From assembly GCF_009730915.1 (NCBI RefSeq), contig NC_052479.1, positions 30,381,610-30,445,609 of the forward strand: DNA of 64,000 bases, given 5' to 3'. Source of the stretch: Dioscorea cayenensis subsp. rotundata. Lineage: Eukaryota; Streptophyta; Magnoliopsida; Dioscoreales; Dioscoreaceae. The number at the start of each line of letters is the position of its first letter. Position 1 is the stretch's first letter. Below the pieces are notes generated by a model that ran no database searches, had not been told where the DNA came from, and worked only from the letters and a program-made list of their open reading frames with translations. A program made the position numbers and the translations under genes. Of the stretch, positions 2,705-53,993 are shown one piece after another.

Positions 2705-5700
2705 ATGCCAATGGCGGCGACGGAGGCCGGGTCCGGGAAGCCGCGGCTTGTCATCACCGAGATGGTGCTGCGGAACTTCAAGTCCTACGCCGGGGAGCAG
2801 CGGATCGGCCCTTTCCACAAGGTGCGTCGCCTTTTATTGCCGGATTCTCTCAATTCTAACTCCTTTCTGAGATTTTCCAGTGCCATTCCTGTGGTTTTGG
2901 TCTTTTGTATGATGTTCAGTGTCTCTTGTTGTGCATTTTTCTTTTTTCAGTTTTTAGGGTAATTTGGGGGTTTGCCATTTGTTCTTCTCCAATTTTGTGG
3001 ATTTTGATGGGTTTTCATGAGTGATTTTGTAATTTTTGTGCTAATTGAATGGTTAGTGATGTCAAGGACGCCTTGATTTTTTTAACTTTTTCTTCTTCCC
3101 TCTTTTATGCTATTTAGATAGTCTTCATTTTTTTCTTCTCCAAATTAGTAGAAATATTTTGGGTGCCTTGTTGTTTATTGGCTGAAATCATGCGGCAAAG
3201 AGTTGTCTAATTGTTATACAAATGGTTCAGAGCTTTTCGGCAGTTGTTGGTCCGAATGGCAGCGGAAAAAGCAATGTTATTGATGCAATGCTCTTTGTGT
3301 TTGGGAAGCGTGCGAAACAGGTAAAAATCGGTAGCATGAGTTTCACAAACCTTACTGCCATTGACTTATGAATTTTGTGCTTGTCACTGAATGCATTCAC
3401 TTTTGGTCTTTACCTTATTTAGCCAGCAATATTTTTATCAATTGAAGATCATTTGTCTAAACAAGTTGGCACATAATTTAAGTACTGATTCTTGCTTGGC
3501 TTTGAGCTCCATTTGGATTCTTGTTGTTTATATTGAAGATGCGACTGAACAAAGTGTCTGAGTTAATACACAATTCTAGCAATCACCAGAACTTGGAAAG
3601 TGCAGGAGTTTCAGTTTACTTCCAAGAGATCATTGATAAGGTATTCTTTCAATGGCTTAAGAGTCAATACTCTGTCCTTGCATTTCAAGTGTGATCTGTA
3701 TTGCTGATTGTCTTCTTTTGCTAGGAGGATGGAACTATTGAACCTGTTGAGGGTAGTGATTTTGTTATCACTAGAGTTGCCTTCAGGGACAATTCTTCAA
3801 AGTACTATATCAATGACCGTGGAAGTAATTTCACTGAGGTCACAAAGAAATTGAAGGGGAAAGGTGTAGATCTGGACAACAATCGGTTTCTTATTCTTCA
3901 GGTTTGATTAATGGTAGATTTTTATTTCTTTCTTTCTTTTATAGGTATTTATTTATCATTAGAAGAGATCAGTAATAAGGGTTTAATCAGCTAAAGTTTC
4001 ATTAGCTTGATGTTACTTTATGGTTGTGTTATGTTCGTGGTTATGCGAACGCCTCTAATTTACAAAATCCTCTTTTACCTTTTTTATTTCCCTGGGAGAA
4101 ACATTTGGTGGCTTGCTAACATGCATGTCATGCGCATTGTGTTCAGGGTGAAGTTGAGCAGATTTCACTAATGAAACCCAAAGCCCAAGGACCACATGAT
4201 GAAGGGTTTTTAGAATACCTTGAAGATATTATTGGAACAGATCAATATGTAGAAAAAATTGAGGAAGCATACAAACAGTGAGTTTGTTATTTGAATATCT
4301 TTCTTTAGATTCTGGGCTTATAGGCATCTGTGTTTTTGTCAATCCACTATATGTTTTTGTCTATTGATGTTTTCTGCTGTTTCTGTCCTATTTTTACCAC
4401 TATTAATGCTGATGTCTGAGAAATAATTTATAGGATGAGAGAGGAATGTCAAAGCTCTGTAGTTAATTATGATTTTGCAATTTTTGTGCTTTAGTTCTAT
4501 CGGTAATACAAGCTTGTGCACTCAATCATCAGTCATCGTAACTGTGTTCTTATGTGCCTACGGGTGAATTAGATGCTTTAGTGAATATCTGAAGCCAGTG
4601 TTGTGGTTCTTGCTGTCTTGCGTCTTCCTTGTATGCCTATTGAAACTACATGGATGAACATGCCAAGATAGGTACTAAGTTTATAGTAGCAATTCATTTG
4701 TATTCATATGTAACCGGTATGCCATGTGAACCTCTGATCGCAGCCCATCTATTTGTTCTTTACCAGGTAAACAAACTGTCTTTGCAGCAACAGTTAACCT
4801 AATAACCCTCATATAAAGCATATCTGTATTTGTGGTTCAAGTAGCCACTCTTGTTACACAAATCAAATATCTGACCTTGCGCTTACTCTACTTCATGCTT
4901 TTTTTGGTGATGACTGTATCAGGGTCACGACATTAGTTGATCTTCCTTTTGTATGCTTTCCTTGTGAAGCAGGGTCCAAATCTTGCTAATTTTAATTTAC
5001 ACTATCCTTCCAAATTTGTCAGCTGGAAGAGTGAGCTGATGTTTGCTTAGCTGATTTGCTGATTATGCCAGCATGTGATCATTAGAATAGTTGCTTTAAT
5101 TTGATATAAGGTACCTAAATTGTACTCATTCAATAAATGTGAGAAATGCAGGCTTGAGATCCTGAATGAAAAGCGCTCTGGTGTAGTGCAAATGGTTAAA
5201 CTGTCTGAAAAGGAAAGGGACAGCTTGGAGGTGTGTGACCCCCTTTCCCATAACCTGCACACAGCCATTACTTATCAGAGACTAATCCCATGTGCTACTA
5301 TTTTATAGAGTATTAAAAATGAAGCGGAAGCTTATATGTTGAAAGAATTGATTCTATTGAAATGGCAAGAGAAAGCAGCAAACTTGGCATCTGATGATGC
5401 TACTTCTCATGTTATTGAGTTGCAAGACAGCATTTCAAATCTTGAAGGAGATCTTTCAAACAAAAGGTTCTCTTTTTTAGGTTTTATTTTTAAGGATATT
5501 TATGAACTCAGCAAGAATGAGGATTTATTCCATTTGCAGAGAGAAAATTCAGCAAAATTCTGAAACTCTGAAGGAACTTGAGGCTGTGCACCAGACATAC
5601 TTGAAACAACATGAGGTGCTGAGCATCTTTTTAATAACATTAGTTACATGGGTGTTGGGACTTAACTCTACTAATTGAGTTGCTTGTTTGTTAAACCTCT

Positions 5701-8700
5701 GCAAGTATTAAGCTATGTCTTCTCATACAAATGTTGGGGGCTATTATCTCTTTTGATGTTAAGATTTTATGTTTCCCACAGTATTATTTTAAAAAGATAC
5801 TTATATATTTATGAAGCTTCCGTTTGCTATGCCTGATACTAGCATTGTCACTTTACTTAGTTCTAGTTTTGTCTCTAATCAATTATCATCTATAAATGTT
5901 ACGTTTTAGGTAGAACTGATGACATCTTTTTCTAGGTGCATGATATTACAAGTTGCTTCTTGAGCTGTATTATGTATGTCATGATCTTTGCTTTTTACTT
6001 GTCTGAGGCTAAAATCATCAGGAACTTGACACTGATCTGAGAACATGCAAGGAGCAATTTAAAGAGTTTGAGAGGCAGGATGTGAAATACCGTGAAGATT
6101 TCAAGCACCTGAAGCAAAAAATCAAGAAGTTGGAAGACAAGCTTGAGAAGGTATGTTTGGAGTATCTTGTTAACCCATTAAACACCAATATGTAAATAAT
6201 TTATATGTTTACTGCAGGACTCAACCAAAATTGATGAAGTTAGTAAAGAGAATGAGGCGTCATCAAATCTGATTCCAAAGCTTGAGGAAGAATTACCAAA
6301 ACTTCAACAACTCCTCCTCGATGAGGAGAAAATCTTGGAGCAAATTCAAGAGAGTTCTCGAGGTACTCCTATTGGGATATTCCAGAATATGGACATCGGC
6401 CTTTAATTTTATGAATGCCTTTTAGTCTAATACCGTAGTAGTTTTTTTATCATCTTAGTTGAGTTGGACACTTATATGATGCAGTTTGAAGTTTTTATGT
6501 ATTCATATAAGTAGATATTTGTATCTTGTAGCAGGCTCTCTTTCTCTTTATGAACTTATAACTTATTAAGGGACAGAGAACCTGTTGTTGGGTATCTCTG
6601 ATCTAATGAGGCCAACAAGAAACATGTTGCTGCTGCACCTAGAGGTAAATGCAGGTTATTCAGTCTTTAGGTCGATCTCCTGATCATTTATAGCATTTGG
6701 CTCATTTGTGACATTGTGGGAAAAAGTGTATTCTTTCACATGTAGAAGGGTAACACTGGCTTATGTTTGTTTTCCTTATAGTAGGGGACAACCAAAAATT
6801 TTTCTATAATTGCAGTCCTTATGAAATATATCACAGTTAATTGTGAACTTTGCCTATAATTAACCCAATTTTGTTGGTCCATCCATGACGATTCAGTTGC
6901 CATAAACTTGATGCCAAGGTTGGTAAACCATATGTATGATATAGCTACTAAGATGAAACTGGCCTCATAGGTGTATTTGTGCTAATTTTTAAATTTTGAG
7001 AATTATGTGCAAATAAATAATGCAAAATGGGTTGGTTGGTTTTGAATCTTGGCTTGATTTGAGATAGGTCTATTCTTGGATTGTCATTTTTATTAGATAC
7101 TATGCTGGTTATTCTAGATTTGCACTAAACCACAAAAGTGTATGTTATGTACCAGTGCTGTACTGCTTGAAAACAAGCTGGATTTTAGAAAAGCAGCTGT
7201 CAGTTAAGCTGTAGCATGAGTTGTTCCGATTTTGAACTTATATTTTCCATTGTAATATTCTGATGTTTGATCATTTGTTTAACATCAGATGAAACAGAGA
7301 GGTATCATGCTGAGCTTGTTAAAGTTCGAGAAGAGTTAGAACCTTGGGAAACTCAACTGATTGAACACAAAGGAAAACTTGATGTTGCAGTTGCTGAAAG
7401 TAATATGTTGAAGGAGAAGGTATGCATGCAGTTTGTTGTTTGTAGATTTATTTTGAAAGTGGAAATTTACTTAAGTGGATATCTGTCAGTCTTCTCTGCA
7501 ATATGACTCTCTCACCTCTAATAAGATTTAAGCTGCTGAAGCCTGGTTATTGCTTCCATTGCTTAATTCTGTGGCTTTTTTTGATGTGTCGTCAGCATAA
7601 TGCTAGTCGAGCAGCTTATGATGATGCACAACAACAGATGAAGGATATAATGGACAAACTAAAAAATAAGCATGAAGATGTGTCTGGAATTCAAACTAAA
7701 TTGGAGAAAAATAAATTTGAATCATTGGAAGCCCATAAGTTGGAACAGGTATATTTGGCAATGACCTTGTTATTCATGTTTTTTTCTTTCTTTTGCGTTA
7801 GGCCAAACAGACTGCTGAGATAGGCTTACTTGACAGGAATGTGTGAAGAAGCAAGAGTCTCTCCTCCCTCTTGAACAGGCAGCTAGACAAAAAGTGGTAG
7901 AATTTAAGTCTATGATGGAATCAGAAAAGAGTCAAGGAGCTGTCTTAAAGGCCATACTGCAAGCTAAAGAATCAAAGGAAATAGATGGAATTTATGGTCG
8001 GCTGGGGGATCTTGGTGCAATTGATGGTTAGGCTTTTGTCCTCTGTTTTTTTTATCCTTTTCTTTTTTTGCAAATTGTTGACACACACACACTCTAGCCT
8101 AAAGGATTTATATATTAATTGGTGAGCAAGTATCAGATTGGATTCTGTTTATATTTGCTTAGCTACTAGTTAAGAATTGCAGGCGACTGATTCGTTCTGT
8201 AAAATATACATAAGTTACAAGGCAGCATTAGATGAAGACCCTGCTGTAGCTCCACTTTATAAAACAAAAAATAGACAGGTAACCTAGAGAATTTAGTATG
8301 GGGCTCAGAAAATTAGTAAGATGTGTCTACCACCCGTTTTTTATACTTACCAAAATTTGCAAATCCTCTTGACATCTCCAACCAGCATTGTACTTGAAGC
8401 TCACCTACCAAAGGCTGACTTAATTGGGTGTAATTTGATTTTTTAAATTTTACTTGCGCGCATGTTGGTGGAGTAATCTATTTTTGATAAGTGATCACAG
8501 ATCATCCTTCCTGTTAAGCAAAAAAAATCATGCTATACTAAGTACTGCTGTGCTAAAATCTTCTCCAAAATAAGATTATGTACACAACTGACTAAACCAT
8601 TCTTTTCCATTTTCTGGTCATTTTTTCAGAAAGGTTGGTGTGAATTTAAGTGACAGGTTTATGATTATGAGTTGTATCTGCTTAGCAGTTTTGGCAAAAA

Positions 8701-15364: not shown

Positions 15365-16401
15365 AGTTTAATTTAGCCCAAAAACTCTAAGTTGACAGAT
15401 AAGATTTATATATTCAAATTAATCGATGTGAGATTATTAGTTAATTTAATATATTTTTTTGTATTATATACTTGTTAATTTTGATATATAATGTATAAAA
15501 TGCAAACTATTCAAAGAACTAACATATAACTCATTTCCGACTGCTTCCAAATCTCTCTTTGGTTAATTAATATTAGTCGATAAATTACGTTTGTGATTCA
15601 TTTTATTAAAAAGAAACACAAATACACACAAAAACATAAATATAAAGTATCAAAATCAAATCCAACATCTAAAGAGTCCTTGATTTCAAATGGTTGGTTT
15701 AGAATGTGAAAGACTAACTAGTGCTCCTCCTCCTCCTCATGCTTAGTCATATCATGTTTGTTCATTTTCATGAGCTGAAAATTCAAACATGATAAGTCCT
15801 ACACCACCACAAAATCTTGCTTTGATTATGAATAACATTAACTTGTTAAGTCTTGTCCAAAAGATTTGGATTATATTTTGTGCTATTCTTGACTAGTCCT
15901 CTTGTCATGCCCTTCTAAGTGCACTCAAGTTTTCATTAACTATTTAAAGATATGGCTCCACCTCCACATTCATCCAAAATGATCCATTTCTTTCCAACAT
16001 GTCATGAATTATTACTCCTTTTTGAGTTCTTAGAACACAAGTGTCATTCTTTGATTTGATAGTTTAAGTGCAAAATTAGTTACTGATTTTTTTTTGTTTA
16101 ATTACTGATTGATTTGATTAAAGATATTTAATTGAAGAACCAATGCAATGCTTACACTTTGATTTAATTACGTCAATATGCTAAGCCAAAGATCTTTTTT
16201 TGATTTCTTATAAAAGTAATGTTGAGTTTCCACTTGTTGCGTGTTAAGTTTGTCATTTGGATTTTTATTAATGTTGGACTAATTCTGAGCAATTTCACTT
16301 GTTTATACCCTTTACCTGAATAAAGATAAACATGATAAAGGTAAGTTTGGAAGTGGAGTTTCAAAATCAGAAATGATGTCAGTGAAGGCTATCAAAATTT
16401 A
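15365..16401. other. AT-rich intergenic DNA
   Basis: The first 60 bases continue the SMC4 downstream flank that is also present near 39.8 kb. Beyond that I see no coding frame, RNA gene or clear transposon end. Confidence 0.5.
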
Positions 16402-16800
16402 GATGAAAATGATGGAAATGAAATCAAACTAGACTCGGTTCTTAGCTGTCAATCACTGGGTAAATCTGTTAGGTGCGTACTGTACTATAATCAAATTTTC
16501 ATTTTGAACATCAAACTTCAATTTATATTATTATTTAGATGAAAATGATGGAAATGAAATCAAACCAGACTGGGTTTTAGTTGTCAACCACTGGGTAAAT
16601 TTGTTAGGTGAGTACCGTACTATAATTATTTTTCATTTTGAGTATTGAACTTCAATTTATATCATTATTTCGATGAAAATGATAAAAATGAAATCAAACA
16701 AGACTGGGTTCTTAGCTGTCAACCACTGGGTAAATTTGTTATGTGGGTACCATATTATAATCATTTTTCATTTCGAGTATTGAACTTCAATTCATATTAT
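16402..16800 (+). repeat. Three-copy tandem repeat, unit about 134 bp
   Basis: Three head-to-tail copies begin GATGAAAATGAT at 16402, 16538 and 16672. Each contains CTGGGTAAATYTGTTA and ends in ACTTCAATTYATAT. The copies are clearly diverged. The last runs into non-repeated DNA with a GC-richer patch at about 16980-17070. No coding frame is conserved between units. The block could be a tandem minisatellite or part of a decayed transposon. Confidence 0.8.
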
Positions 16801-18060
16801 TTGGTCACAAAACTTTAATTTGTGTTCACTGGATGGGTACCGAGAGGATTACTGGGAGAATTTGATGACATTTATAACGGATTTGTCATTTCACTACCAA
16901 TTCGCGCTTCAGCTGCATATGTGTATATATATGCCATATCATTAAAGAAAGCCACATGGTTATTTTTATTGACCAATTCGTTGGGCCTACGTGGCATGTG
17001 CCGTATTAATAAGAGTGACCATGCGGACCCGTGACCCTCTTTAATGATGTGTCATGCGCGCGTATGCAGATGGAGGAGTAAACTAGTGTTAACTTAACAA
17101 ATGTGACATACATGTTATCAAATTTTTCTTGGAATTTTCTAGGTATTCTATCACTAAACGCAAATTAAAATTGAATAATCAGATTGATACTAATTGTCGA
17201 AGTTCCTAGAAAAGAAAAAATTGCAATAGCACAGTATTCAATCTATATATTTATCTTTCAATCTCTTACTCAAAATAAAGTGTAAGTTGCATGGTTTCCT
17301 TAATTTTTGATAGTTTGAGTTGAAACTGAAATAAATGAAATGAAAGATGGAGAGTTTCACTCAATTATTTAATTTATGCCCATGCCTATGGTACTAATGT
17401 TTTAAAATAAAAATTATACAAGAAGATCTTAAAAAAATAAATTCAAAGAAAAAGGTCATCAATTTATGTTAAGGTACAATTATCATATAAATAATGTGTG
17501 TGCATGCATATAAAATAAAATTGTATATATGTGTATGTATTCACTTAAGTTTTAAATAATTTGGATGAAAAATGTTAAAAGGAAGCAATTAAGTTCAAGT
17601 TTTAAGGTTATTAATAAGTTGTAATGAATTACGTTGCTCATATGAATTGTAAGCATATGTACCTTGGTAAAGGGTGTAATGGAACCTTATATACAATTAA
17701 AGTGGTTAAATTAAATATTCATGGAATTAAAAAAAGTATAGTACCGTAAAAGATCAATACAATGAGAATAATTTTCTTTAAAAAAATAAAATAATTAAAA
17801 TTGATAAGGCTCAAGTTCTTTAACCTTTGCAATTATATTATATATTGAGTATTCACAAATAATGAAACTATAAATTGCATTTCTTTACAACTAGAAACAT
17901 CAAAATCTCGGTTGCACAACAAATAAATAATTTATTAATTATTAAAAAAAATCAAACTTGGCTCCTTGGGAATGGAAAACTACTTTACCTTATTACTATG
18001 AAAATCAATTAAATATATATAATAAATAAGAATACAAGATTTTCTTTCATATATTTTGCG
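16801..18060. other. Intergenic DNA, no gene seen
   Basis: The short open frame at 16822-17034 has no recognisable domain. The GC-richer patch around 16980-17070 resembles degenerate transposon sequence but I found no matching terminal repeats. The rest is AT-rich. Confidence 0.45.
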
Positions 18061-26930: not shown

Positions 26931-27624
26931 TTTAAATAAGTGGAAATTGCCAAAAAAACCCTACAACTTTGCCAAATTGCCAAACAAACCCCCATAGTTT
27001 CGGAATACCCAAAAACCCCTTCCTTTTCAACTCCATGATTTTGAAACCCCCAAAGTACGTGAACGGCATTAAACGGAGTGTATTTAAAATTTTATGGACT
27101 GAAAAATGCCCTTGCACTGAAGTCGTGGTCTGCACTCCATTTCGGCGTGTGAGAGAAAGTGGGTGGGTTTTTCTTAGGCATTACAAATGCTTGTCTTCTC
27201 TCAACTCGCGACTCGACTCAACTCGCATCTCCGACTCTTCTCTTCCCACAGCACTCTTCCCTTTCCATCTGGGCGTCTCGAAGAAGAAGTCCCCGTGCAA
27301 GTATTCTGAGATTTCGTCACTTTCCAGTCTAAGGTATTCATTATGGTTTTTTGTTAACTATTCTGTTACGAAGAGACATTTTTCGGTTTTGGTTTGTGAT
27401 TTTGTTTTTGTTGGAAGACATCAAGCTTTCGAGGGGATTAATCGTACGGGGTTTTTGTTAGTCTGCAGGGAGATGTCTCGGCTAGGGTTTTTGTTTTGTT
27501 TTACATTTTTCGCCTATGTATACGATCGAAATGGTTTTTCCGATTGTTGTGCTTTTGTGTAATGTTTATAATCTCACGCTTTACCCTTTCGGTTGATATG
27601 GTTGCGATTGTAAAAATGAGGTCT

Positions 27625-27785
27625 CCGCTTAAACAATGAGCTTTCTACGGCTTTAAGTTAGTTCGTCTCCGCTTAATTATTTGTATCTCTCGTTTAATAG
27701 TATACGCCACTACTTAAAAAAATGATATCGGTGTTTAAGAACCGAGTGTTTACCGCTTTAACAAATTACATTTCCGCTTAACAAT
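27625..27785 (+). repeat. Periodic YGYTTTAA array 1 in the MULE
   Basis: TTAA cores preceded by CCGCT, CGT or GTGT occur at 27629, 27653, 27673, 27694, 27714, 27735, 27758 and 27778, a spacing of 20-24 bp. Only the core is conserved; the spacer bases differ. Confidence 0.8.
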
Positions 27786-29360
27786 GTCGTCGTTATTGTC
27801 GCAGCTTGTGATTATGGCGGTTAATCTAGTTAATGGGCGATGCTACTTGACACCTGCTGAGTGGAGACCATGGGTCGAATTGAAAGTTCACATGATCCCT
27901 CGACATCGGGAGATCATCCAGAAGGACACCGCTCACAGATTTCATCGAGTTGGAAGTCGTATACCAAGAGCGGGCCCTTCTCGACTCTGCTGCGGAGATA
28001 CGATAACCGCACCAATAAATTCGGGATCGGGAAAGCATCTGACTTTCGAGCTCGAAGATGTGGCAATCGTTCTTCGCGTCTAGCGATGGGGAGGCGATCG
28101 TGTTTCGAAGAAGAAAACACGTCGACTTTCAAGAGAGGTATTTATCGAAGACGCACGAGAGACACGAGAGACTCCATCGGGAGCACTCTTCAAAGAACTC
28201 GTTGGACGAGAGGGAGAAGAGGAGAATTTTTGCCAAACCATCGATGGTGTACCTCCCGGGTACAATCCTCTTCCCAAATACCTCCCCGCTCGGTTCCTAA
28301 CCGGATCGTTGATTATGTCGATGATCTACCTAGAATGGGCGCCACGCATGGGCGCAAGCGACGCACAAGTGGCTTATGGAGGACATACCACAAGCCGCTA
28401 CCCGAGTCGCAATCTAGATGCTGCGGGAAGAAGACCAACACGGGTATGTTAAGGGTTGCAGTGGCGCTTAACATCCCGGGTTTCTACGAGTCGACCGGAA
28501 CCCGGAAAGAAAGTCCGTTCTGCAAGATCCCAAGGATGCTCGTGCTACGGTGAAAATACTTTACTGAAGCAAGCTGACGATAGAGACGAGTTTGTCATCT
28601 CTCGAAGGAAAAGAGGTAATAATTCAAAAAAATATTTTGTTTAATCGTAGACGTTAACGCTTTAACCATATCATTTCTACCGCTTTAACTTTATTCATCT
28701 ATCGCTTTAACATTATAACTTACCGTTTAACTTTGTTCAACTACCGCTTTAAACTTTTTAGTTTAATGTTTAATTTGTTTGTTTCATCGTTTAACACAAT
28801 AGGTTATAACGTTTAAATATCATGAGTTACATGTGTAAATATAGTTTTAATTGTTTAAACTAAATAATTTCGCTAAGATTGTTTGCTTTTACACATGCTA
28901 GTTTCCTGAGTGGTTCCCGCGAATCGTCGATGAAGAAGTATTTGTTCGACCAACCGTCGGTCGGATGCTATTGCTCCCGAACCGCTTGCTTTCAAAAGAC
29001 AAGATGAGAGGGCAACCTCTTCCTTGCGCTACTGGACGCCCGTTCTCCCCGCTTCGTGCCAAAAGCGCATTCGTCGAGGTCGAGAAGCCCTCCCCACCCC
29101 GCCCGACCGTGGCTTCCCCGACCGTGTCGGCCCCGAACGTGGCGGCCCTCGCCAGGCACTAGGCGAGGATGTCACTCGCAACTCTCATGCAGGGCTTGCA
29201 GATTTTTGATGATCGAGTTCCCTCGCTGCATCGCTCGGGTGGAGGCATTGGAAGGTCGGTCACGATTACTAATCGATCGCGCCTTCCCTTCAAACAAATG
29301 AAGCACCCGATCTCGACGTCCCTTATCTCGATGACAGGTATGTTTCCGCATACTTAGGGA
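27784..29360 (+). pseudogene. Degraded plant-mobile-domain/DUF1985-like gene of the MULE
   Basis: No single frame is long, but adjacent frames join into a plausible protein. One frame gives HLTFELEDVAIVL at about 28035-28076, and after a frame change SDGEAIVFRRRKHVDFQERY follows at about 28082-28140. Together these resemble the MTFTLEDVAxxLGLRxxG block of plant mobile domain and DUF1985-like proteins carried by plant MULEs. A second coding-like block begins at about 28903 (FPEWFPRIVDEEV) with a proline-rich tail (EKPSPPRPTVASP), separated from the first by array 2, which may be an intron. In-frame stops and frame changes indicate a relic. The family assignment is by eye and tentative. Confidence 0.4.
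28637..28860 (+). repeat. Periodic YGYTTTAA array 2 in the MULE
   Basis: Cores occur at 28641, 28662, 28685, 28707, 28727, 28749, 28770, 28791, 28813, a variant at about 28834, and 28854. Spacing is 20-23 bp. The consensus is close to (A/T)CCGYTTTAAC. Confidence 0.85.
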
Positions 29361-29444
29361 GGGAGGCGGTAGGCATCACGACCCGGAGGGAGTCTTCGCA
29401 AGCGGGTTCTTAGTCATTCTTTCTATATTTGTATACACGATTCT

Positions 29445-29555
29445 TTCTTTAATAATCCGATTCATTGTTTAACATACACTTTCAGTGTTTAAGTATATAG
29501 TTCATTGTGTAAATATCAATGTAATTGTTTAAACTCCGCTTTTCATCTGTAAAAC
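29445..29555 (+). repeat. Periodic array 3 in the MULE
   Basis: Cores occur at 29449, 29469, 29489, 29509 (variant TGTAAA), 29529 and 29549 (variant TGTAAAA). Spacing is exactly 20 bp. Most units read TTCATTGTTTAA. Confidence 0.8.
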
Positions 29556-29859
29556 GAACCGAGAGGGAGTGTACGCAAGCGGGTCATAGTCATTGTATAG
29601 GTGTAATAGTTTCAAATGTAAACCGCTTTAAATTCAATTCATTTTTTCCGAAGAACATGACAAATTTTGTCAATGTAAATGTACATGTATCTAAATTCAA
29701 TTAAATTCATTCTGCTTTCGTTTTGAGGTTCTCGTTTCTTGTTGGATGATATTGTAGTCCGCAGGGTACATTATCGGATGGGGTTCTGCTTTCATTTTCA
29801 TTTTTCATTATCGGCTAATATCAACATTCATTTTTAATCAGTATAATGATAACTTTTGC

Positions 29860-30020
29860 CCTTTAACTTTCGCTTTTCTCTGCTTTAAGTTTAGGTTTCT
29901 CTGCTTAAATATAATATTTTTCCGTTTAAAATATCCTTATTATTTAATAATATCAATGTAATTACAACAAAAAAATATACTTAATATTTTTCCTGCTTTA
30001 AAATATCCTTATTACTTAAT
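29860..30020 (+). repeat. Periodic array 4 in the MULE
   Basis: Cores occur at 29863, 29885, 29905, 29926 and 29944, with further TTAA words at 29981, 29998 and 30016. This is the last array in which the core points rightwards (CTGCTTTAA, CCGTTTAA). Confidence 0.65.
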
Positions 30021-30045
30021 GTAATGTTCCGATTTTTTTATGTGC

Positions 30046-30116
30046 GACGGGAGTGGAAACGCTGGGGAACCGAGCATGTATTAATTACGCTGGGGAACCG
30101 CTAGCACCATCCCGTC
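30046..30116. repeat. Paired direct repeats inside a small inverted repeat at the MULE centre
   Basis: ACGCTGGGGAACCG occurs twice (30059-30072 and 30087-30100), 28 bp apart. The pair is enclosed by GACGGGA (30046-30052) and its complement TCCCGTC (30110-30116). It lies exactly where the periodic motif switches orientation. Confidence 0.75.
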
Positions 30117-30121
30117 AGACA

Positions 30122-30235
30122 TTTTAAGCGGATACAAATTTATTTTTAAACGATAAAAATAATGGCTTAAACAGAGAATAAAATATTTAAAACGTAAGAG
30201 ATATATTTAAATATAAAAGTTCAATATTTAAACAA
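30122..30235 (-). repeat. Periodic array 5 in the MULE, inverted
   Basis: TTAA cores at 30124, 30146, 30167, 30187, 30207 and 30228, spaced 20-22 bp. They now read TTAAACG/TTAAGCGG, the reverse complement of the left-hand arrays. Confidence 0.8.
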
Positions 30236-30249
30236 TAATAAGAAGTATA

Positions 30250-31240
30250 TACACAATGCCTAGTCGGCAATGTATTCATTCCACGATCTGCGATTGTGAC
30301 ACAAAGCGTGCTAGATGGCTACTAACGCAACTCTGCGGGACCTGGACGCTTCACGACTCGATCCTCTTTCGCTCTAGGACACCCGGGTTGCCTTCTCGTC
30401 ACAAAGTGTAGCAAACGCAGTCACGATTTTTCATCCATCGGCCTGTCGTATCGTCCCGGTATGGGAATATAGCTTCCTTATACGCCATTTTTGAAGTCGA
30501 AGCTTCCTTCCACAAATCACCCGTGTTTCTCGTTCTTCGATAATTTGAAGTCAAAAATTCCTTTTGATCGCAGAAAAATTCCTAAAGTGCGTCTCTCGAA
30601 ATGTTCACGCCTTTCAAAACATTGTCCAATATCCAACGACAACACTTCGACTTGATCGGATGAGGAAGGAAGGCATGCCACACCCTCGGGCTCGCCATGA
30701 TGTGGAGCGAAGCGTCTGCCAGTCTCGATTCCTCGCCAACACTTTAGTTTAAACGAACACGATCAATATTTAAACGAGACACAAAAATATTTAAACGATA
30801 AACATAAATCTTAAACGTTAAAACAAAAAGTTAAATAATAAGTTAATAAGTTAATCGGAGACAATAGTGTTTAAATGGAAACTTGATAAATGTAAACAGT
30901 GACATGGATAATAAACAATAATTAACTTCTACAACTATATAAACATAAACGAGAAGAAACTTACAACGAGAAGAACTCGCTTTTCGATGGGATACGATGC
31001 CACATCATCTGCTCCCAACAACAAGATCAACAATGTAACATTTGAAGATGGAGTGCACGTGACACATGCTACTGGAAGTCAACCTCGCTTTTATATGGGA
31101 CATACTGGTTTTATGTCCATCGGGATGTGATAAACTTCACCCGACACGGAAATATCGAGACCCCATCGCTCACATATTTCACCTAACACTGATTCCCCAA
31201 GAAGTCGCAGCGAACATTAGCACTCGCCCTCCCCGCTGTC
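30250..31240 (-). pseudogene. Truncated MULE transposase N-terminal region (minus strand)
   Basis: Read on the minus strand from about 31205, one frame gives LLGEICERWGLDISV followed by YHIPMDIKPVC. This resembles the PB1-like N-terminal domain of plant MULE transposases. After an array-filled gap (array 6), 30500-30330 gives KMAYKEAIFPYRD, GRWMKNRDC and, in another frame, GCP...VVKRPGPAELR. That layout resembles the MuDR DNA-binding domain (FxS...YKxAI...KN...C...GCPWR). Frameshifts and stops interrupt it. The DDE catalytic and SWIM domains expected next are missing, because an array and the opposite-strand gene occupy that place. I infer a dead transposase; the match is by eye only. Confidence 0.4.
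30745..30895 (-). repeat. Periodic array 6 in the MULE, inverted
   Basis: Cores at 30749, 30770, 30791, 30811, 30831, 30851, 30871 and a variant at about 30891, spaced 20-21 bp. Most read TTTAAACGA. The array sits between the two minus-strand coding relics, where an intron could be. Confidence 0.85.
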
Positions 31241-31304
31241 AGTCTAGCAATAGCACAAAAACTCTCCATAATTTAATCGAAGAGCTAAAAATTGAATACA
31301 CCAA

Positions 31305-31372
31305 ATGAGAAGAAGAAAAAGAAGAAGAAGAAGAAGAAGAACAAGAACAAGAACAAGAACAAGAAGAACAAG
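31305..31372 (+). repeat. (GAA/CAA)n tract
   Basis: A purine-rich tract of GAA and CAA triplets inside the right part of the MULE. The arginine-rich frame on one strand and the serine-rich frame on the other are artefacts of this tract. Confidence 0.85.
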
Positions 31373-31646
31373 ATATGAGCCTTCTAAACTTTGTTTGAGA
31401 AAAAGCGAAAGAGGCAAATTGAAAAACTATCGACAAAAGAAAAGTTATGATCGTAGCCATTTTTCCCACTTTTGCAAAGGCAAAAAAGAATTTCATATCG
31501 TGGACCCACTTCAACTTACCGCTGAGGGGTTAAAAAGGAATGTAAAAATATAATCTGGAGTACTGGGTCGTGTGCAAAAAGTTGGAGGGGTTTTTGGGAA
31601 GTTTTGAAAAATTACTGAGTGAGCAATGAATTTTCCCTTTAAATAA

Positions 31647-39794: not shown

Positions 39795-41503
39795 ATATAT
39801 AAATTTTACTTAGCCTGTCAACTCAAAGCTTTTGGACTAAATTAAACTCAAATAATATATGTTTACCATCTAGGCAGCTCATGCAGTCTTGATTTCAGTA
39901 TCATATTCAATGCTTTGTACCCCCTTGACATTTTTATTTTATCTAATGCATTACAACAACAAACACAGCATTATATCCAGCAAAATGCATGCACACATAA
40001 AATTCCTTCAAAATTAATTCCTGTTGAAGATTCTAAATCAGTTTACATACAAGTATCTACAATCCTTTCATAATATGATAATAAACCATTTACATAGCAA
40101 TGTCGAGTAGTTGAGCTTAGTCAAAAGAAGATTAGTATTCCACAACTCACAATTAGCGTCATGTCTTTGTTCCATGATTAATCTTTATCACAATCAATCT
40201 ATACAAAACTTCCAGGATTTATAGTGATGCTCTTTGTGCAATTGTCCGTCTTATAGATGCCGACGAGTCGATCAGCCAGTTCAAACATATTATTCCTCAA
40301 GCTGCAAGCAATGATGCTAAAGAAGAGTTAAAAAAAGGAAACTGATGAAAATTAATGACAGTAAAATTCACAAATGACTGATGATAAGAACTGCATATAT
40401 ATGCTGGTCTATGGCGACATATATACTAATGAATGTCATATGAACCACATAGACATTAGTCACCATGGCTAACATTTAGTAGCTATGAAGGTTGAAAAAA
40501 TCTTCATTAAACTTGGGAAATCCATTTCTTTCCATCTAGAACAGATTCAAGGTAATTAACACTGGATGATTCAACCCAAAGCCTTGAGCTGATTGAGAGA
40601 CTCAAAAAGAATATTCATGATTTGAATATGAATGTGGGATTATTAGTTACTCCAATATATGAATACTATTTCTGCAAAGAACCTCAAATTCAAATCAACA
40701 GCATTGTAAAATGTTAAAAATTTTCAACTTTGAGTTGATCAAGATAAAAATATTCAGAAATAAGGACTGCAGTAATCAAGTAGATGTGTTCGCAGTCCAA
40801 GCCTAAGAAATGGATGCAAGCCTAATGTAAGGAACCAATCAGTACTTACAACACTAATCCTTCAAATCTCAGATGCAATCAACCCTGAATAATCAATCTA
40901 GAACTCATGTTCAATGATCAACACAAAAGAGCCAAAAGAAGATCAAGAAAAAAGAGTACACCTTGGAGGCAGAAAACTATTGTTTCAATAGAAAACTGAA
41001 TTTAAATATAAATAGAAATCTCATCTTGAATAATAGCTCTGATATGTAAATATTCAGAGAAACCCTATCCCAAGCAGTAACATAACAGAAAAGAGTCCTG
41101 ATTGAAAAACTAGTTGAAATTAGTTATTATTCTTCATGGAATAGACTTTAGGTTGGTCTGACTTCAGTTATTATTCTGATCTCCTTTGGAGGTCTGACAC
41201 TGAAAACCACACCCTCAGATAAAGGATCCAAATAATCAACAAGTTCTAGTTCTGCATCACCTCCAAGAGTAATCATCTGCAATACAGATTTCAGTTATTC
41301 CTAGAGATATTTAGCTTATCAACAAGACAGTGAAAGATAAATACAAAGCAGGCAACTCTTTCACAAGGGGCAGTGCTACAAAAAAAACTTACTGTTGTTA
41401 GGTGTAAGAAAACAAGATACAAACTCTCAATTGTACATAACCTAATACAACAAACATCTAATTCACATACTTGATACATTTCCTTCCGCTTTAGAGATAT
41501 AAC
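39795..41503 (-). pseudogene. SMC4 3'-end pseudogene, copy 2
   Basis: This is an inverted partial genomic copy of SMC4 from mid-exon (…ISLKLKEMYQ, about 11793) to downstream flank (about 15420). Introns are retained, so it arose by DNA duplication, not retrotransposition. Recognisable pieces are the MITLGGDAELELVD exon (41279 down to about 41190) and the last exon with ELADRLVGIYKTDN (about 40310-40220). Two deletions relative to SMC4 remove about 12107-12725 (ABC signature exon end and intron) and about 13515-13830 (the Walker B and next exons). It cannot encode a working ATPase head. It lacks the 939-bp hAT insertion seen after SMC4. Confidence 0.85.
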
Positions 41504-48939: not shown

Positions 48940-50335
48940 ATATATATCATTTTCAATACTTTGTACCCCTTGACATTTTTATTTTATCTAATGCATTACA
49001 ACAACAAACACAGCATTATATCCAGCAAAATGCATGCACACATAAAATTCCTTCAAAATTAATTACTGTTGAAGATTCTAAATCAGTTTACATACAAGTA
49101 TCTACAATCCTTTCATAATATGATTATAAGCCATTTACATAGCAATGTCGAATAGTTGAGTTTACTACCGAACATATCGAAAGATGGATTAGTATTCCAC
49201 ATCTCACAATTAGCATCATGTCTTTGTTCCATGATTAATCTTTATCGCAATCAATCTATACAAAACTCCCAGGATTTATAGTGATGCTCTTTGTCCAATT
49301 ATCTGTCTTACAGATGCTGACGAGCCAGTTCAAACATATTATTCCTCAAGCTGCAAACAATGATGCAGAAAAAGATGAGTTAAAAATGAAACTGATGAAA
49401 ATTAACGACAGTAAAATGCACAAATGACTGATGATAAGACCTGCATATATATAAATGCAGGTCTATGCCGACATATATACTAATGAATGTCATATGAACA
49501 ACATAGACATTAGTCACCATGGCTAACATTTAGTAGCTATGAACATAAAAGATTGAAAAAAATTTCATTAAACTTAAGAAATCCATTTCTTTCCATCTAG
49601 AACAGATTCAAGGTAATTAACACTGGATGATTCAACCCAAAGCCTTAGACTGATTGAGAGACTCAAAAAGAATATTCATGATTTGAATATGAATGTGGGA
49701 TTATTAGTTACTCCAATATATGAATACTATTTCTGCAAAGAACCTCAAATTCAAATTAACAACATTGTAAAATGTTAAAAAAATTTCAACTTTGAGTTGA
49801 TCAAGATAAAAATATTCAGATAAAAGGACTGCAGTAATCAAGTAGATGTGTTCGCAGTCCAAACCTCAGAAATGGATGCAAGCCTAGTGTGAGGAACCAA
49901 TCAGTACTTACAACATTATTCCTTCAAATCTCAGATGCAATCAACCCTGAATAATCAATCTAGAACTAATGTTCAATGATCAAAACAAAAGAGCCAAAAG
50001 AAGATCAAGTAAAGAGAGTACACCTTGAAGGTAGAAAACTATGGTTTCAATAGAAAACTGAATTTAAATATAAATAGAAATCTCATCTTGAATAATAGCT
50101 CTGATATGTAAATATTCAGAGAAAACCTATCCTAAGCAGAAAAATAACAGAAAAGAGTCCTGATTTTGAAATAGAAAACTTGACTCACAAACATTAAAAG
50201 GACCCTTTCACTACTAAATAGCATGGGCGGGGCAATCCTAGCAAAGGTTTCAGTTTGTACTTTAAATTTCTTTTATGTTTCAAGAATCCACTAATACTAA
50301 TATCTCATCAACTCATGACATCAAAATAATAATAA
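48940..50335 (-). pseudogene. SMC4 3'-end pseudogene, copy 3 (cut by assembly gap)
   Basis: This is an inverted partial copy matching SMC4 from about 12360 to 14355, same orientation as copy 2. It shares with copy 2 the deletion of the Walker B region (about 13515-13830), so the two come from one already-damaged ancestor. It has its own deletion (about 12520-12800) and a 9-base loss in the last exon (GATCGACTC of ADRLV). It keeps the intron segment 12360-12520 that copy 2 lost. The copy runs into the N gap, so its 5' end is unknown. Confidence 0.85.
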
Positions 50336-51335
50336 NNNNNNNNNNNNNNNNNNNNNNNNNNNNNNNNNNNNNNNNNNNNNNNNNNNNNNNNNNNNNNNNN
50401 NNNNNNNNNNNNNNNNNNNNNNNNNNNNNNNNNNNNNNNNNNNNNNNNNNNNNNNNNNNNNNNNNNNNNNNNNNNNNNNNNNNNNNNNNNNNNNNNNNNN
50501 NNNNNNNNNNNNNNNNNNNNNNNNNNNNNNNNNNNNNNNNNNNNNNNNNNNNNNNNNNNNNNNNNNNNNNNNNNNNNNNNNNNNNNNNNNNNNNNNNNNN
50601 NNNNNNNNNNNNNNNNNNNNNNNNNNNNNNNNNNNNNNNNNNNNNNNNNNNNNNNNNNNNNNNNNNNNNNNNNNNNNNNNNNNNNNNNNNNNNNNNNNNN
50701 NNNNNNNNNNNNNNNNNNNNNNNNNNNNNNNNNNNNNNNNNNNNNNNNNNNNNNNNNNNNNNNNNNNNNNNNNNNNNNNNNNNNNNNNNNNNNNNNNNNN
50801 NNNNNNNNNNNNNNNNNNNNNNNNNNNNNNNNNNNNNNNNNNNNNNNNNNNNNNNNNNNNNNNNNNNNNNNNNNNNNNNNNNNNNNNNNNNNNNNNNNNN
50901 NNNNNNNNNNNNNNNNNNNNNNNNNNNNNNNNNNNNNNNNNNNNNNNNNNNNNNNNNNNNNNNNNNNNNNNNNNNNNNNNNNNNNNNNNNNNNNNNNNNN
51001 NNNNNNNNNNNNNNNNNNNNNNNNNNNNNNNNNNNNNNNNNNNNNNNNNNNNNNNNNNNNNNNNNNNNNNNNNNNNNNNNNNNNNNNNNNNNNNNNNNNN
51101 NNNNNNNNNNNNNNNNNNNNNNNNNNNNNNNNNNNNNNNNNNNNNNNNNNNNNNNNNNNNNNNNNNNNNNNNNNNNNNNNNNNNNNNNNNNNNNNNNNNN
51201 NNNNNNNNNNNNNNNNNNNNNNNNNNNNNNNNNNNNNNNNNNNNNNNNNNNNNNNNNNNNNNNNNNNNNNNNNNNNNNNNNNNNNNNNNNNNNNNNNNNN
51301 NNNNNNNNNNNNNNNNNNNNNNNNNNNNNNNNNNN
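50336..51335. other. Assembly gap (1000 N)
   Basis: Exactly 1000 N bases, the usual placeholder for a gap of unknown size. The long frames spanning it are artefacts. The gap starts inside an SMC4-derived repeat, a likely cause of the break. Confidence 0.99.
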
Positions 51336-53993
51336 GAGGGTTTTAGAAATACTGATTCCATTAATTTTATAGTGAATTATGGAAACAGTGTTGATTTTGA
51401 TTATTCTAATTAATTCAATTATTCTCCATAATAATTGATATTAATTGTGAAAACATTGGTCTTTGATTGAAGGTTGTAGTTTTTCTTATTTAAGTTGTTC
51501 TTTACATATGAAAATAATTGGGATTTCATGGCTTCGTCTCATTCAATCAATGCACACTTAATTTCAATCATCTTTATTTAAAAAAAAAAACCTTAACTAT
51601 TTAGATATATATATTCATTTCATGCTTTCATTATTACCACAAACTAATGTAATGAAAGATATGGATGAGTTATTTATGATAATGTGAAGCATGAGTTTAT
51701 TGTCGAGATCTCTAATTCCAACTCATCATAATTTCATTTTGAAAGTGCCTCATAATTATGTCTATATTTCTAAATGTACTAAGACAAAAATGATGAGTAT
51801 ATGACAAGACAGGACTAAAGTCTATTAAAATATAAATTAGAGACTTTTGTGACAGTAAATAAGATAAACTTTGTTTGCATTTGTTGTCGTATTTTTGAAA
51901 CTCGATCTAATACGTCTTATGACTTTTATCTTTTCATGTAAACAAATAATGTTTTATTATTTAAAATTGGATATGTATCCTTATCGTGATGTGACGTGAC
52001 ATTATTTTTGGTGCAATAAAGCACAGAATTATTTAGTTAGTTGCAGGATCTTCTGCACATGAAGATAGGCAGCTCGAGAACTAAAGGTTGGAGGCAATAG
52101 ATCTGGTTCGTATCTAATTTTCAGAAATCAGAGCTTTTTGGATCTTTCGTATCATTTGAGCGACAGAATAAATAACTCAATAAAAGTAATTTAAAAAGAA
52201 AATTGAACCGAAATGTTTGGAGAGCAATAAATCGTTTTCAGTTTGTTTTGAGTGCTCTTTTTCAATTAGCAAATGTTTCTAAACTTTGCATAGATTCATT
52301 ATTGTCATCAAATGCCTCAAAAATCAAGTTTTCCCTCCATATATATACATATGTTTTTATTTATATACCTTTGAAAAATATGCAATTATTACTTTTATTG
52401 CTTATTTACTCTTGTAAAATATTCTAATTTGCATATATATGCTTCCAAATGCCGATTAAAAATTTAATATTAAACTTCACTTTTACTCTCTCTCATTGTT
52501 TTAATATGATAATAAGAGATTAATGATGAATGATATATATATATATATATATATGAGCGGCGTGTTGACAACACTCTAGCTAAACTGTGGATTTTGAATG
52601 CAACGATCATTATCAAAATAGTACTTTACGTCGTAACAACTCTGGCTAATCAAATGCCCGGTAGCTAATAATAATTTTGTATATCACCTCTATAAATAAC
52701 TTACTGAGATTGGTTTATAGATTTCTAATCACTGCCATCAATTTTTAGAATTTTATAAAAGCCCAAAGAAAATTATGGAGACGTATTATATTGCACATAT
52801 AATGATATGAAAGCACTATTGAGTAGCATAGTACATGCATTCCACTAGCAAAAACAAAAGAAAGTGTGGTGGAGGAAACTGTAGTTCCACCACGTCACTC
52901 AAATAAATAAATAAATAAAATAAAATAAAAACCTCACAACCATAGAATTGGCATCAATCTCTTCTCATATGCCATTTGACCATAGCATAGAAACAACTAG
53001 AGGAAGAGATGCAAAGAAGCTCTCACCCAATTATTTTTCTTTTTCATTTTCTCAAAAGATTCTTGATTTTAATTTCACAATAATTCATCTCACAGTCATC
53101 TTCACCTTATAAAGTTTTAATGTCACTTCTTTGATTTTTTTTTCTCTCCATTTATAGCTTAATTAATTTTCAATTAAAATGGTGCCAAATGAGCAAAGGA
53201 AAAAAAAGTTGTCTCATTAGCATCATCATTTTCCACTTGCACCACTTAATTTGATCATGTTTTTCATAAAAGTTTTATTGCAAAAGATAAACATGATGCG
53301 CCAACTCAGTGATAATTACTCTTAAAATACTCAAACAAGAGATAAGTGCTATATGTCAATTTATTGGGTATTTAACTCAGAACACTCAAATAATAATAAA
53401 TAAAAGAAAATAAAATAAAAACATAGAAATTTACCAATAGAAAGAAAAAAAGATGATTTAATTATATTGAAAATTAAGTGTAATGGTGGCCTTTAAGTTT
53501 GCTAAAGTTATAATATCATGATAAAATTTAAAAAAAAATTAAAATATGTTCTAGTTTAATTACAAATTGAGTTAACCTAGATTTAGTCTAAGCTTTAATT
53601 TGATTGTGCTACTACTTAGATACAATTTGATCATCTAAATTTTCTAAATAGGTACATATTGTAGGAGCCCCTGCACCTTTAATAATATTAGTAGTGAGTT
53701 ACTGATATATATGATCCCTCTTTTATCACAAAAAATAAATTATCATAATTAAAAAAAACGCATAAATTACACTGTGAACTTTTAAAATTGTGTCAAACAA
53801 AATTTAAGTCATAAACTCTAAAATACTCCACATATTCAACATCATCAAGTATATATTAGAGTGTATATAGTAATGGTTAAGAAGTAATATAAATAAGTTA
53901 TTAACTATTTAATTATTGTTTAAAAAAAAAGCATCTCATTCACAATTATTTGGACCTAAAAAAGTAGGGGAACACGGAAGCCTAACATGGCAA

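What the first reader, a model, noticed from the sequence alone, without database searches (positions are those of the whole stretch)
27625..30895. 20-22-bp-periodic YGYTTTAA arrays with orientation switching at the MULE centre
At least six non-coding arrays in one MULE-like element carry a short TTAA-centred core at 20-22-bp steps, with spacers unrelated in sequence (for example cores at 28641, 28662, 28685, 28707, 28727, 28749, 28770, 28791, 28813; and 30749, 30770, 30791, 30811, 30831, 30851, 30871). Left of about 30.02 kb the core reads CGYTTTAA on the plus strand; right of 30.12 kb it reads TTAAACG. The switch coincides with the meeting point of two convergent coding relics, so every array is in the sense of its neighbouring gene. 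Two helical turns of spacing would place bound proteins on one face of the DNA. Arabidopsis VANDAL (non-TIR MULE) elements carry comparable short-motif arrays recognised by their own VANC anti-silencing proteins. A similar element-specific recognition system here is an inference by analogy, and possibly undescribed for this family.
Basis: partly seen in the sequence, partly recalled or inferred. Interest (0 to 1): 0.75.

Follow-up and report, generated by a model that had tools for sequence, protein, structure and literature searches.

The report
Phased motif arrays in yam transposons
A family of jumping genes in the yam genome carries rows of a short DNA word repeated every two turns of the helix, pointing in opposite directions in its two halves, beside a gene related to an Arabidopsis jumping-gene protein that undoes host silencing; the rows look like docking sites for such a protein, which would extend a system shown so far in Arabidopsis to a monocot.

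Summary
A 4,698-bp Mutator-like element (26940-31637; 9-bp target duplication) in Dioscorea rotundata carries six non-coding arrays of T..YCGYTTTAA at 20.9 +/- 0.9 bp: 25 same-strand core pairs at 20-22 bp against 0.4 in shuffles (maximum 3). Spacers are nearly unrelated; orientation flips near 30.05 kb. The right halves of seven copies about 90% identical repeat arrays and flip. A 9.3-kb copy, 19-29% diverged where alignable, repeats the arrays (32 pairs against 0.5) and the flip in its body, but one block faces the other way. The left gene, broken as assembled, is related to DUF1985/plant-mobile-domain proteins (E 3.5e-61; DUF1985 below Pfam cutoff); DUF1985 is a domain of Arabidopsis VANC. 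An array fills its first intron in both copies. The right gene is a transposase fragment without catalytic core. Of 144 scored relatives of the left gene here, 31 have no stop. Most likely the arrays are binding sites for the family's own VANC-like anti-silencing protein, with another motif and stricter spacing than in VANDALs. Binding and demethylation are untested. Rivals: transposase or host-factor sites, decayed minisatellites. Differences between copies cluster at CHG sites, so some frame breaks and core variants may be assembly errors.

The parts
26931..26939 (.). left 9-bp target-site duplication TTTAAATAA
   Evidence: only exact 9-mer shared by the two 80-bp end zones
26940..31637 (+). 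Mutator-like element, non-autonomous copy, 4698 bp, weak degenerate terminal repeats
   Evidence: TSD and end similarity; 2 of 500 mononucleotide shuffles reach the terminal alignment score. Both ends also match the ends of the C5 copy, which has its own 9-bp duplication
27600..27800 (+). array A, 8 TTAA sites, upstream of or in the 5' part of the left gene
   Evidence: steps 24,20,21,20,21,23,20
27816..28615 (+). exon 1 of a gene related to DUF1985/PMD proteins, frame broken as assembled
   Evidence: read with X at most breaks: P0001 E 3.5e-61, 57% identity; P0001/P0002 match PF10536 and PF09331; the exon itself gives no Pfam match
28616..28901 (+). intron 1 with array B, 13 TTAA sites, most in phase
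   Evidence: GT at 28616, AG at 28900-28901; proteins P0008, P0011, P0013 continue GQK/GKK/GKE-F across this point; sites
28902..29420 (+). further coding relic of the left gene, no domain found
   Evidence: three-frame translation; no Pfam match
29430..29640 (+). array C, 5 TTAA sites
   Evidence: steps 20,20,40,99; present in 8 of 8 aligned copies
29840..30020 (+). array D
   Evidence: steps 29,22,20,21,18,37,17,18; present in 8 of 8 copies
30110..30245 (-). array E, first array of opposite sense, 6 sites
   Evidence: steps 21,20,20,21,22; the DNA 30036-30346 found at 39 other places at 91-93% identity
30255..30739 (-). transposase relic (3' piece joined to the DNA-binding exon; catalytic part deleted)
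   Evidence: DNA match to the C5 copy either side of a gap corresponding to its 4887-6448; that interval is not found by blastn in this element or in 7 other loci
30740..30910 (-). array F, in the putative transposase intron
   Evidence: steps mostly 20-21; homologous interval in the C5 copy also phased
30920..31290 (-). 5' exon relic of the transposase
   Evidence: 72% DNA identity to the C5 copy, whose ORFs match PF03108 (E 2.9e-6) and, below cutoff, PB1
31638..31646 (.). right 9-bp target-site duplication TTTAAATAA

Best explanation
The arrays are cis-acting binding platforms of a yam Mutator-like transposon family. A protein of the VANC kind, encoded by the DUF1985/plant-mobile-domain gene of fuller copies, would bind T..YCGYTTTAA words spaced about two helical turns apart, so that several molecules sit on one face of the DNA, and would keep or render the element unmethylated and transcribable. 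Internally deleted copies such as this one keep arrays, ends and fragments and would be served in trans. The opposite sense of arrays in the two halves follows the two convergent genes. Shown here: arrays, step, orientation switch, recurrence, intron placement, relation of the gene, loss of the transposase core. Inferred: that this protein binds this word, that binding removes methylation, that the phasing serves cooperative binding.
For: Periodicity far above shuffles in two copies that are 19-29% diverged where alignable. Motif kept while spacers are nearly unrelated. Arrays lie in non-coding parts, including putative introns of both genes, in both copies. Right halves of seven further copies show the same polarity: 51+/0-/2 undecided left, 2+/73-/13 undecided right, but they are close relatives of one another. 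Left gene related to DUF1985/PMD proteins. In Arabidopsis, VANC21 binds same-orientation, high-density short-motif arrays in introns and intergenic parts of its own family, VANC6 has a different motif, and VANC carries DUF1985 (PMC5735166). An internally deleted subfamily carrying the arrays is at many places (39 other places among 40 scored of 368 candidates for the E block). Relatives of the gene without stops exist (31 of 144 scored).
Against: No binding, methylation or expression data. DUF1985 matches are below Pfam's cutoff (29.2 and 32.4 bits against 35.1) and PMD is above cutoff in P0001 only; DUF287, the second VANC domain, was not seen. Core positions are only somewhat better conserved than spacers between the two copies (A 40/45 vs 135/181, B 51/61 vs 79/111 with 148 gap columns, E 36/42 vs 76/97, F 45/59 vs 96/126), and core-like words in the coding exon do as well (18/19 vs 594/729). 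One block of the second copy has the wrong orientation. The 31 stop-free genes were not shown to sit in elements with this array.
Confidence: 0.5

Rival explanations
1. The arrays are binding sites for the family's transposase or for a host transcription factor, serving transposition or promoter activity rather than anti-silencing.
For: Short repeated binding sites for transposase-related proteins are known in CACTA and hAT elements (recalled, no call). The block homologous to array E lies near the right end in the C5 copy. The transposase has a MuDR DNA-binding domain.
Against: Most arrays are internal and several lie in putative introns, not subterminal. A transposase-site model does not by itself predict arrays in both genes' introns or the sense switch.
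Confidence: 0.2
2. The arrays are old minisatellites of a roughly 21-bp unit that spread by slippage and decayed; T-richness on the sense strand is tolerated in introns; no function.
For: TRF reports units of 21, 22 and 42 bp at 67-84% match in arrays B, D and F; adjacent spacers are slightly more alike than shuffled ones (0.384 against 0.332 +/- 0.019). Core conservation over spacers between copies is weak.
Against: Simple decay should erase core and spacer equally, yet flanking core columns keep 0.45-0.88 bits against 0.02-0.17 in most spacer columns (TTAA itself was the selection criterion). The same word and step occur in six separate arrays and again in the second copy, whose intron 1 has five exact 20-bp steps while the window's has 20-23.
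Confidence: 0.22
3. The phased TTAA steps position nucleosomes or bend DNA.
For: TTAA/TTTAA at multiples of the helical repeat is a feature of rotational positioning (general knowledge).
Against: No signal at one helical turn: AA/TT/TA is 0.95 and 0.99 of expectation at lags 10 and 11, TTAA 0; the second copy likewise has TTAA 0 at 10-11. The strand-asymmetric YCGY flank is not explained.
Confidence: 0.06

Closest known systems
VANDAL21 (Hiun) with VANC21, Arabidopsis
   Same: Mutator-like element; accessory gene with DUF1985; short same-orientation motif at high density in introns and intergenic parts (PMC5735166)
   Different: Motif YAGTATTAY there, T..YCGYTTTAA here; the text as far as read reports no fixed step or polarity switch (words 'spacing' and 'interval' absent); function shown there, not here
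VANDAL6/8 with VANC6, Arabidopsis
   Different: Motif AGTTGTCC/AGTTGTAC
PMD-bearing MULEs (groups MULE-Monocots, MUDR and others, PMC6446971)
   Same: MULEs with a PMD gene, often antisense to the transposase, 9-bp TSD listed for several groups; one paper speculates that captured PMDs serve anti-silencing (PMC5418596)
   Different: No motif arrays were seen in the passages of those papers that I read

Membership tests
Mutator-like element (MULE) | 8-11-bp target-site duplication | tested here: met
   TTTAAATAA both sides; second copy TTTTTTTTA both sides
Mutator-like element (MULE) | MuDR-type transposase | tested here: met
   PF03108 E 2.9e-6, above cutoff, in the second copy; PF10551 only 0.18. 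Window relic homologous by DNA; its own reading gave no Pfam or protein match
VANDAL/VANC system | accessory gene with DUF1985 (and DUF287) | tested here: inconclusive
   window exon itself no Pfam hit; its relatives match DUF1985 at 1e-6 and 1.1e-7, below cutoff; DUF287 not seen; domains were found in exon-1 relatives only
VANDAL/VANC system | short-motif arrays in non-coding parts, same orientation within an array | tested here: met
VANDAL/VANC system | known VANC21 or VANC6 motif | tested here: not met
   consensus T..YCGYTTTAA is neither motif
VANDAL/VANC system | transposase in the VANDAL clade | not tested
   no VANDAL sequences at hand; no tree was made
VANDAL/VANC system | protein binds the motif and causes methylation loss | not testable with these tools
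   needs experiment or methylation data

The most novel reading that the evidence does not exclude
A monocot transposon family runs its own sequence-specific anti-silencing system: a DUF1985/plant-mobile-domain protein that polymerises along one face of the DNA on sites set two helical turns apart, with a recognition word unlike those of Arabidopsis VANCs and with array polarity tied to the direction of transcription, maintaining non-autonomous members in trans.
Probability: 0.35. Interest if true: 0.78.

Novelty: new variant of a known kind. Interest (0 to 1): 0.6.

Why it matters
In the literature I could search (listings and passages), VANC-type anti-silencing is shown only in Arabidopsis. 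A monocot family with a DUF1985/PMD gene, its own motif and a fixed two-turn step would suggest that such systems are old or arose repeatedly, would give the plant mobile domain a candidate role, and predicts how the protein multimerises on DNA. If the assembly was made from nanopore reads (recalled), methylation over the arrays could be read from existing data.

Tried and rejected
Nucleosome phasing: rejected as the main cause, no signal at 10-11 bp. CpG decay as the source of YG variants: before YT(1-3)AA the dinucleotides are CG 22, TG 13, TA 7, CA 1, seven others 1-2 each making up 50; decay should give TG and CA alike, but CHG-linked errors may blur this. Structure of the DUF1985/PMD exon: AlphaFold2 mean pLDDT 42.8, not used; no PDB sequence relative. 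Right relic as protein: no Pfam, no homologue. Viral and prokaryote collections: P0001 no relative; a strict array pattern gave 6 viral contigs, not followed up. Generic scan for phased 5-mers (6 or more in a row) over 336,000 bases, window included, found besides this family one low-complexity run in L016 and one 41-bp-step 5-mer in L026 2529-2736. Core-versus-spacer conservation between copies: weak, not used as support. Genome-wide count of the array pattern: not completed (an earlier form). Arrays next to stop-free genes: could not be read.
Full report
What is there. The window lies at G000:C9:30381610-30445609 of a 584-Mb assembly. The host is therefore almost surely white Guinea yam. The feature is a 4,698-bp element with a perfect 9-bp duplication, the only 9-mer shared by the two 80-bp end zones. 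Its ends match those of a 9,265-bp copy at C5:3008824-3018088, which has its own 9-bp duplication TTTTTTTTA.

The arrays. Six non-coding arrays hold 50 TTAA sites, most about 21 bp apart. Step 20.87 +/- 0.92 (n=30) in the window and 20.71 +/- 0.98 (n=42) in the C5 copy, counting gaps of 19-23 only. Pairs at 20-22 bp are 25 against a shuffle mean of 0.41 (maximum 3 of 300 shuffles) and, in the C5 copy, 32 against 0.5 (maximum 3 of 200 shuffles). Aligned on TTAA, informative positions are T at -9 and YCGYT at -6 to -3; most spacer columns carry little information. There is no 10-bp component.

Polarity. In the window, matrix hits read + left of 30036 (34+/5-) and - right of it (3+/12-). Seven loci holding right halves of copies (89-91% identity over 2.2-2.4 kb) show 51+/0-/2 undecided left of the switch and 2+/73-/13 undecided right, counting only sites from locus position 760 on; sites before that were left out of the tally (two per locus in six loci, none in one: 7+, 4-, 1 undecided). 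These copies share one internal deletion, so they are not independent. The C5 copy, aligned at 71-81% identity in its main pieces, has 28+/5-/3 undecided in its first 4.6 kb, 0+/13- over 5.2-6.9 kb, then 8+/2-/2 undecided at 7.4-8.1 kb and 0+/4-/2 undecided near the right end (hand count of in-phase sites; first two compared, p 8.4e-8). The third block faces against the transposase gene. In this copy the block homologous to array E sits by the right terminus rather than at the centre, so one of the two copies is rearranged relative to the other.

The genes. The left gene, read through its breaks with X, matches P0001 at E 3.5e-61 (57% identity) and P0002 at 6.3e-39. P0001 matches PMD above and DUF1985 below cutoff; P0002 matches both below cutoff. 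The window exon alone gives no Pfam match. An alignment search found 15 proteins. Array B fills an intron whose position is supported by relatives that continue across it and by most genome matches of P0001 ending at about residue 250-256 (by eye). The right gene is a transposase fragment: the C5 copy has PF03108 at 2.9e-6 in an exon that the window relic shares in part. The interval 4887-6448 of the C5 copy, which holds its putative transposase core (PF10551 only at E 0.18), is not found by blastn in the window element or in the seven other loci. The window element thus belongs to an internally deleted, amplified subfamily: the E block gave 40 scored matches, itself included, out of 368 candidates.

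Caveat on letters. In an alignment of 8 copies, 43% of differences fall within 2 bases of CHG trinucleotides, which make up 21% of positions; CAG sites carry 0.85 events per copy against 0.09 at TTA, and indels are common. Other CG sites are raised too (0.064 substitutions per position against 0.024 elsewhere), as are indels in homopolymers, and substitutions are not mainly C to T (C>T 164, G>A 134, T>C 131, A>G 97). Between the window and C5 exons 32 of 56 gap openings are near CHG against 39% expected (p 0.005), but mismatches are not (17.5% near, 14.1% elsewhere, p 0.25). This suits base-calling errors at methylated cytosines in a long-read assembly; that the assembly used nanopore reads is recalled, not read here. 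Some frame breaks, TG/CG variants and T-run lengths in cores may be such errors. If so, the copies are methylated in the sequenced plant. True C-to-T decay would also enrich CHG sites, but would not give the indels.

Random sampling. Of 26 pieces of 10 kb taken by place from the genome, one held a copy, and clusters of this array occurred only there (21 pieces scanned for clusters; the other 5 searched by blastn; all by the generic scan). The family is common but the arrays are not a general feature of this genome.

How it probably works. In Arabidopsis VANC21 binds YAGTATTAY words arrayed in one orientation at high density in introns and intergenic parts of its own family and causes local CG and wider non-CG methylation loss; VANC6 has another word (PMC5735166, parts 1-3 of 6 read; passages). 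PMC10398659 (passages) reports that host RNA-directed methylation targets the same kind of non-coding parts. The yam family has the same anatomy with a different word. The constant step near two turns suggests molecules on one face, perhaps cooperative. This is inference. Meeting reports mention unpublished VANC structures (PMC8756742, PMC12859917, passages).

Literature limits. Searches for VANC/VANDAL, DUF1985 with Mutator, VANC21, Dioscorea with Mutator-like, and monocot anti-silencing listed no title or abstract start reporting such arrays outside Arabidopsis; the lists were capped (for example 25 of 187), only listings and passages were seen, and the library lacks most subscription papers. 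PMC5418596 (passages) speculates that PMDs captured by MULEs serve anti-silencing; PMC6446971 (passages) lists PMD in many plant MULE groups. PMC6419827 and PMC5142408 (passages) summarise the Arabidopsis work. PMC9010478 and PMC13128126 (passages) were read for the yam assemblies only.

Noticed in passing
alignment of window 29314-31637 with L036-L042: Differences between copies cluster at CHG trinucleotides and include many indels, as if assembly errors at methylated cytosines; could serve as an accidental methylation trace.
   Followed up: partly
G000, 144 places listed: Large PMD/DUF1985 gene family (5795 first-look candidates); 31 of 144 scored copies without a stop by hand count.
   Followed up: partly
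C5:3007726-3008211 (L026 7726-8211, minus strand): A distant PMD-like segment (22-24% identity to P0001, P0003 and P0008) just outside the 9.3-kb copy, perhaps another element.
   Followed up: no
L026 9721-9995: A 275-bp imperfect palindrome (74%) inside the 9.3-kb copy, in the block between transposase start and right end.
   Followed up: no
window 40987-41032 and 50049-50094: The same 24-bp tandem unit occurs twice 9,062 bp apart, suggesting a duplicated or long-terminal-repeat-bounded segment.
   Followed up: no
window 16390-16801: Tandem repeat of a 135-bp unit, 3.1 copies.
   Followed up: no
window about 50336-51346: Run of N, an assembly gap or withheld stretch (seen as X).
   Followed up: no
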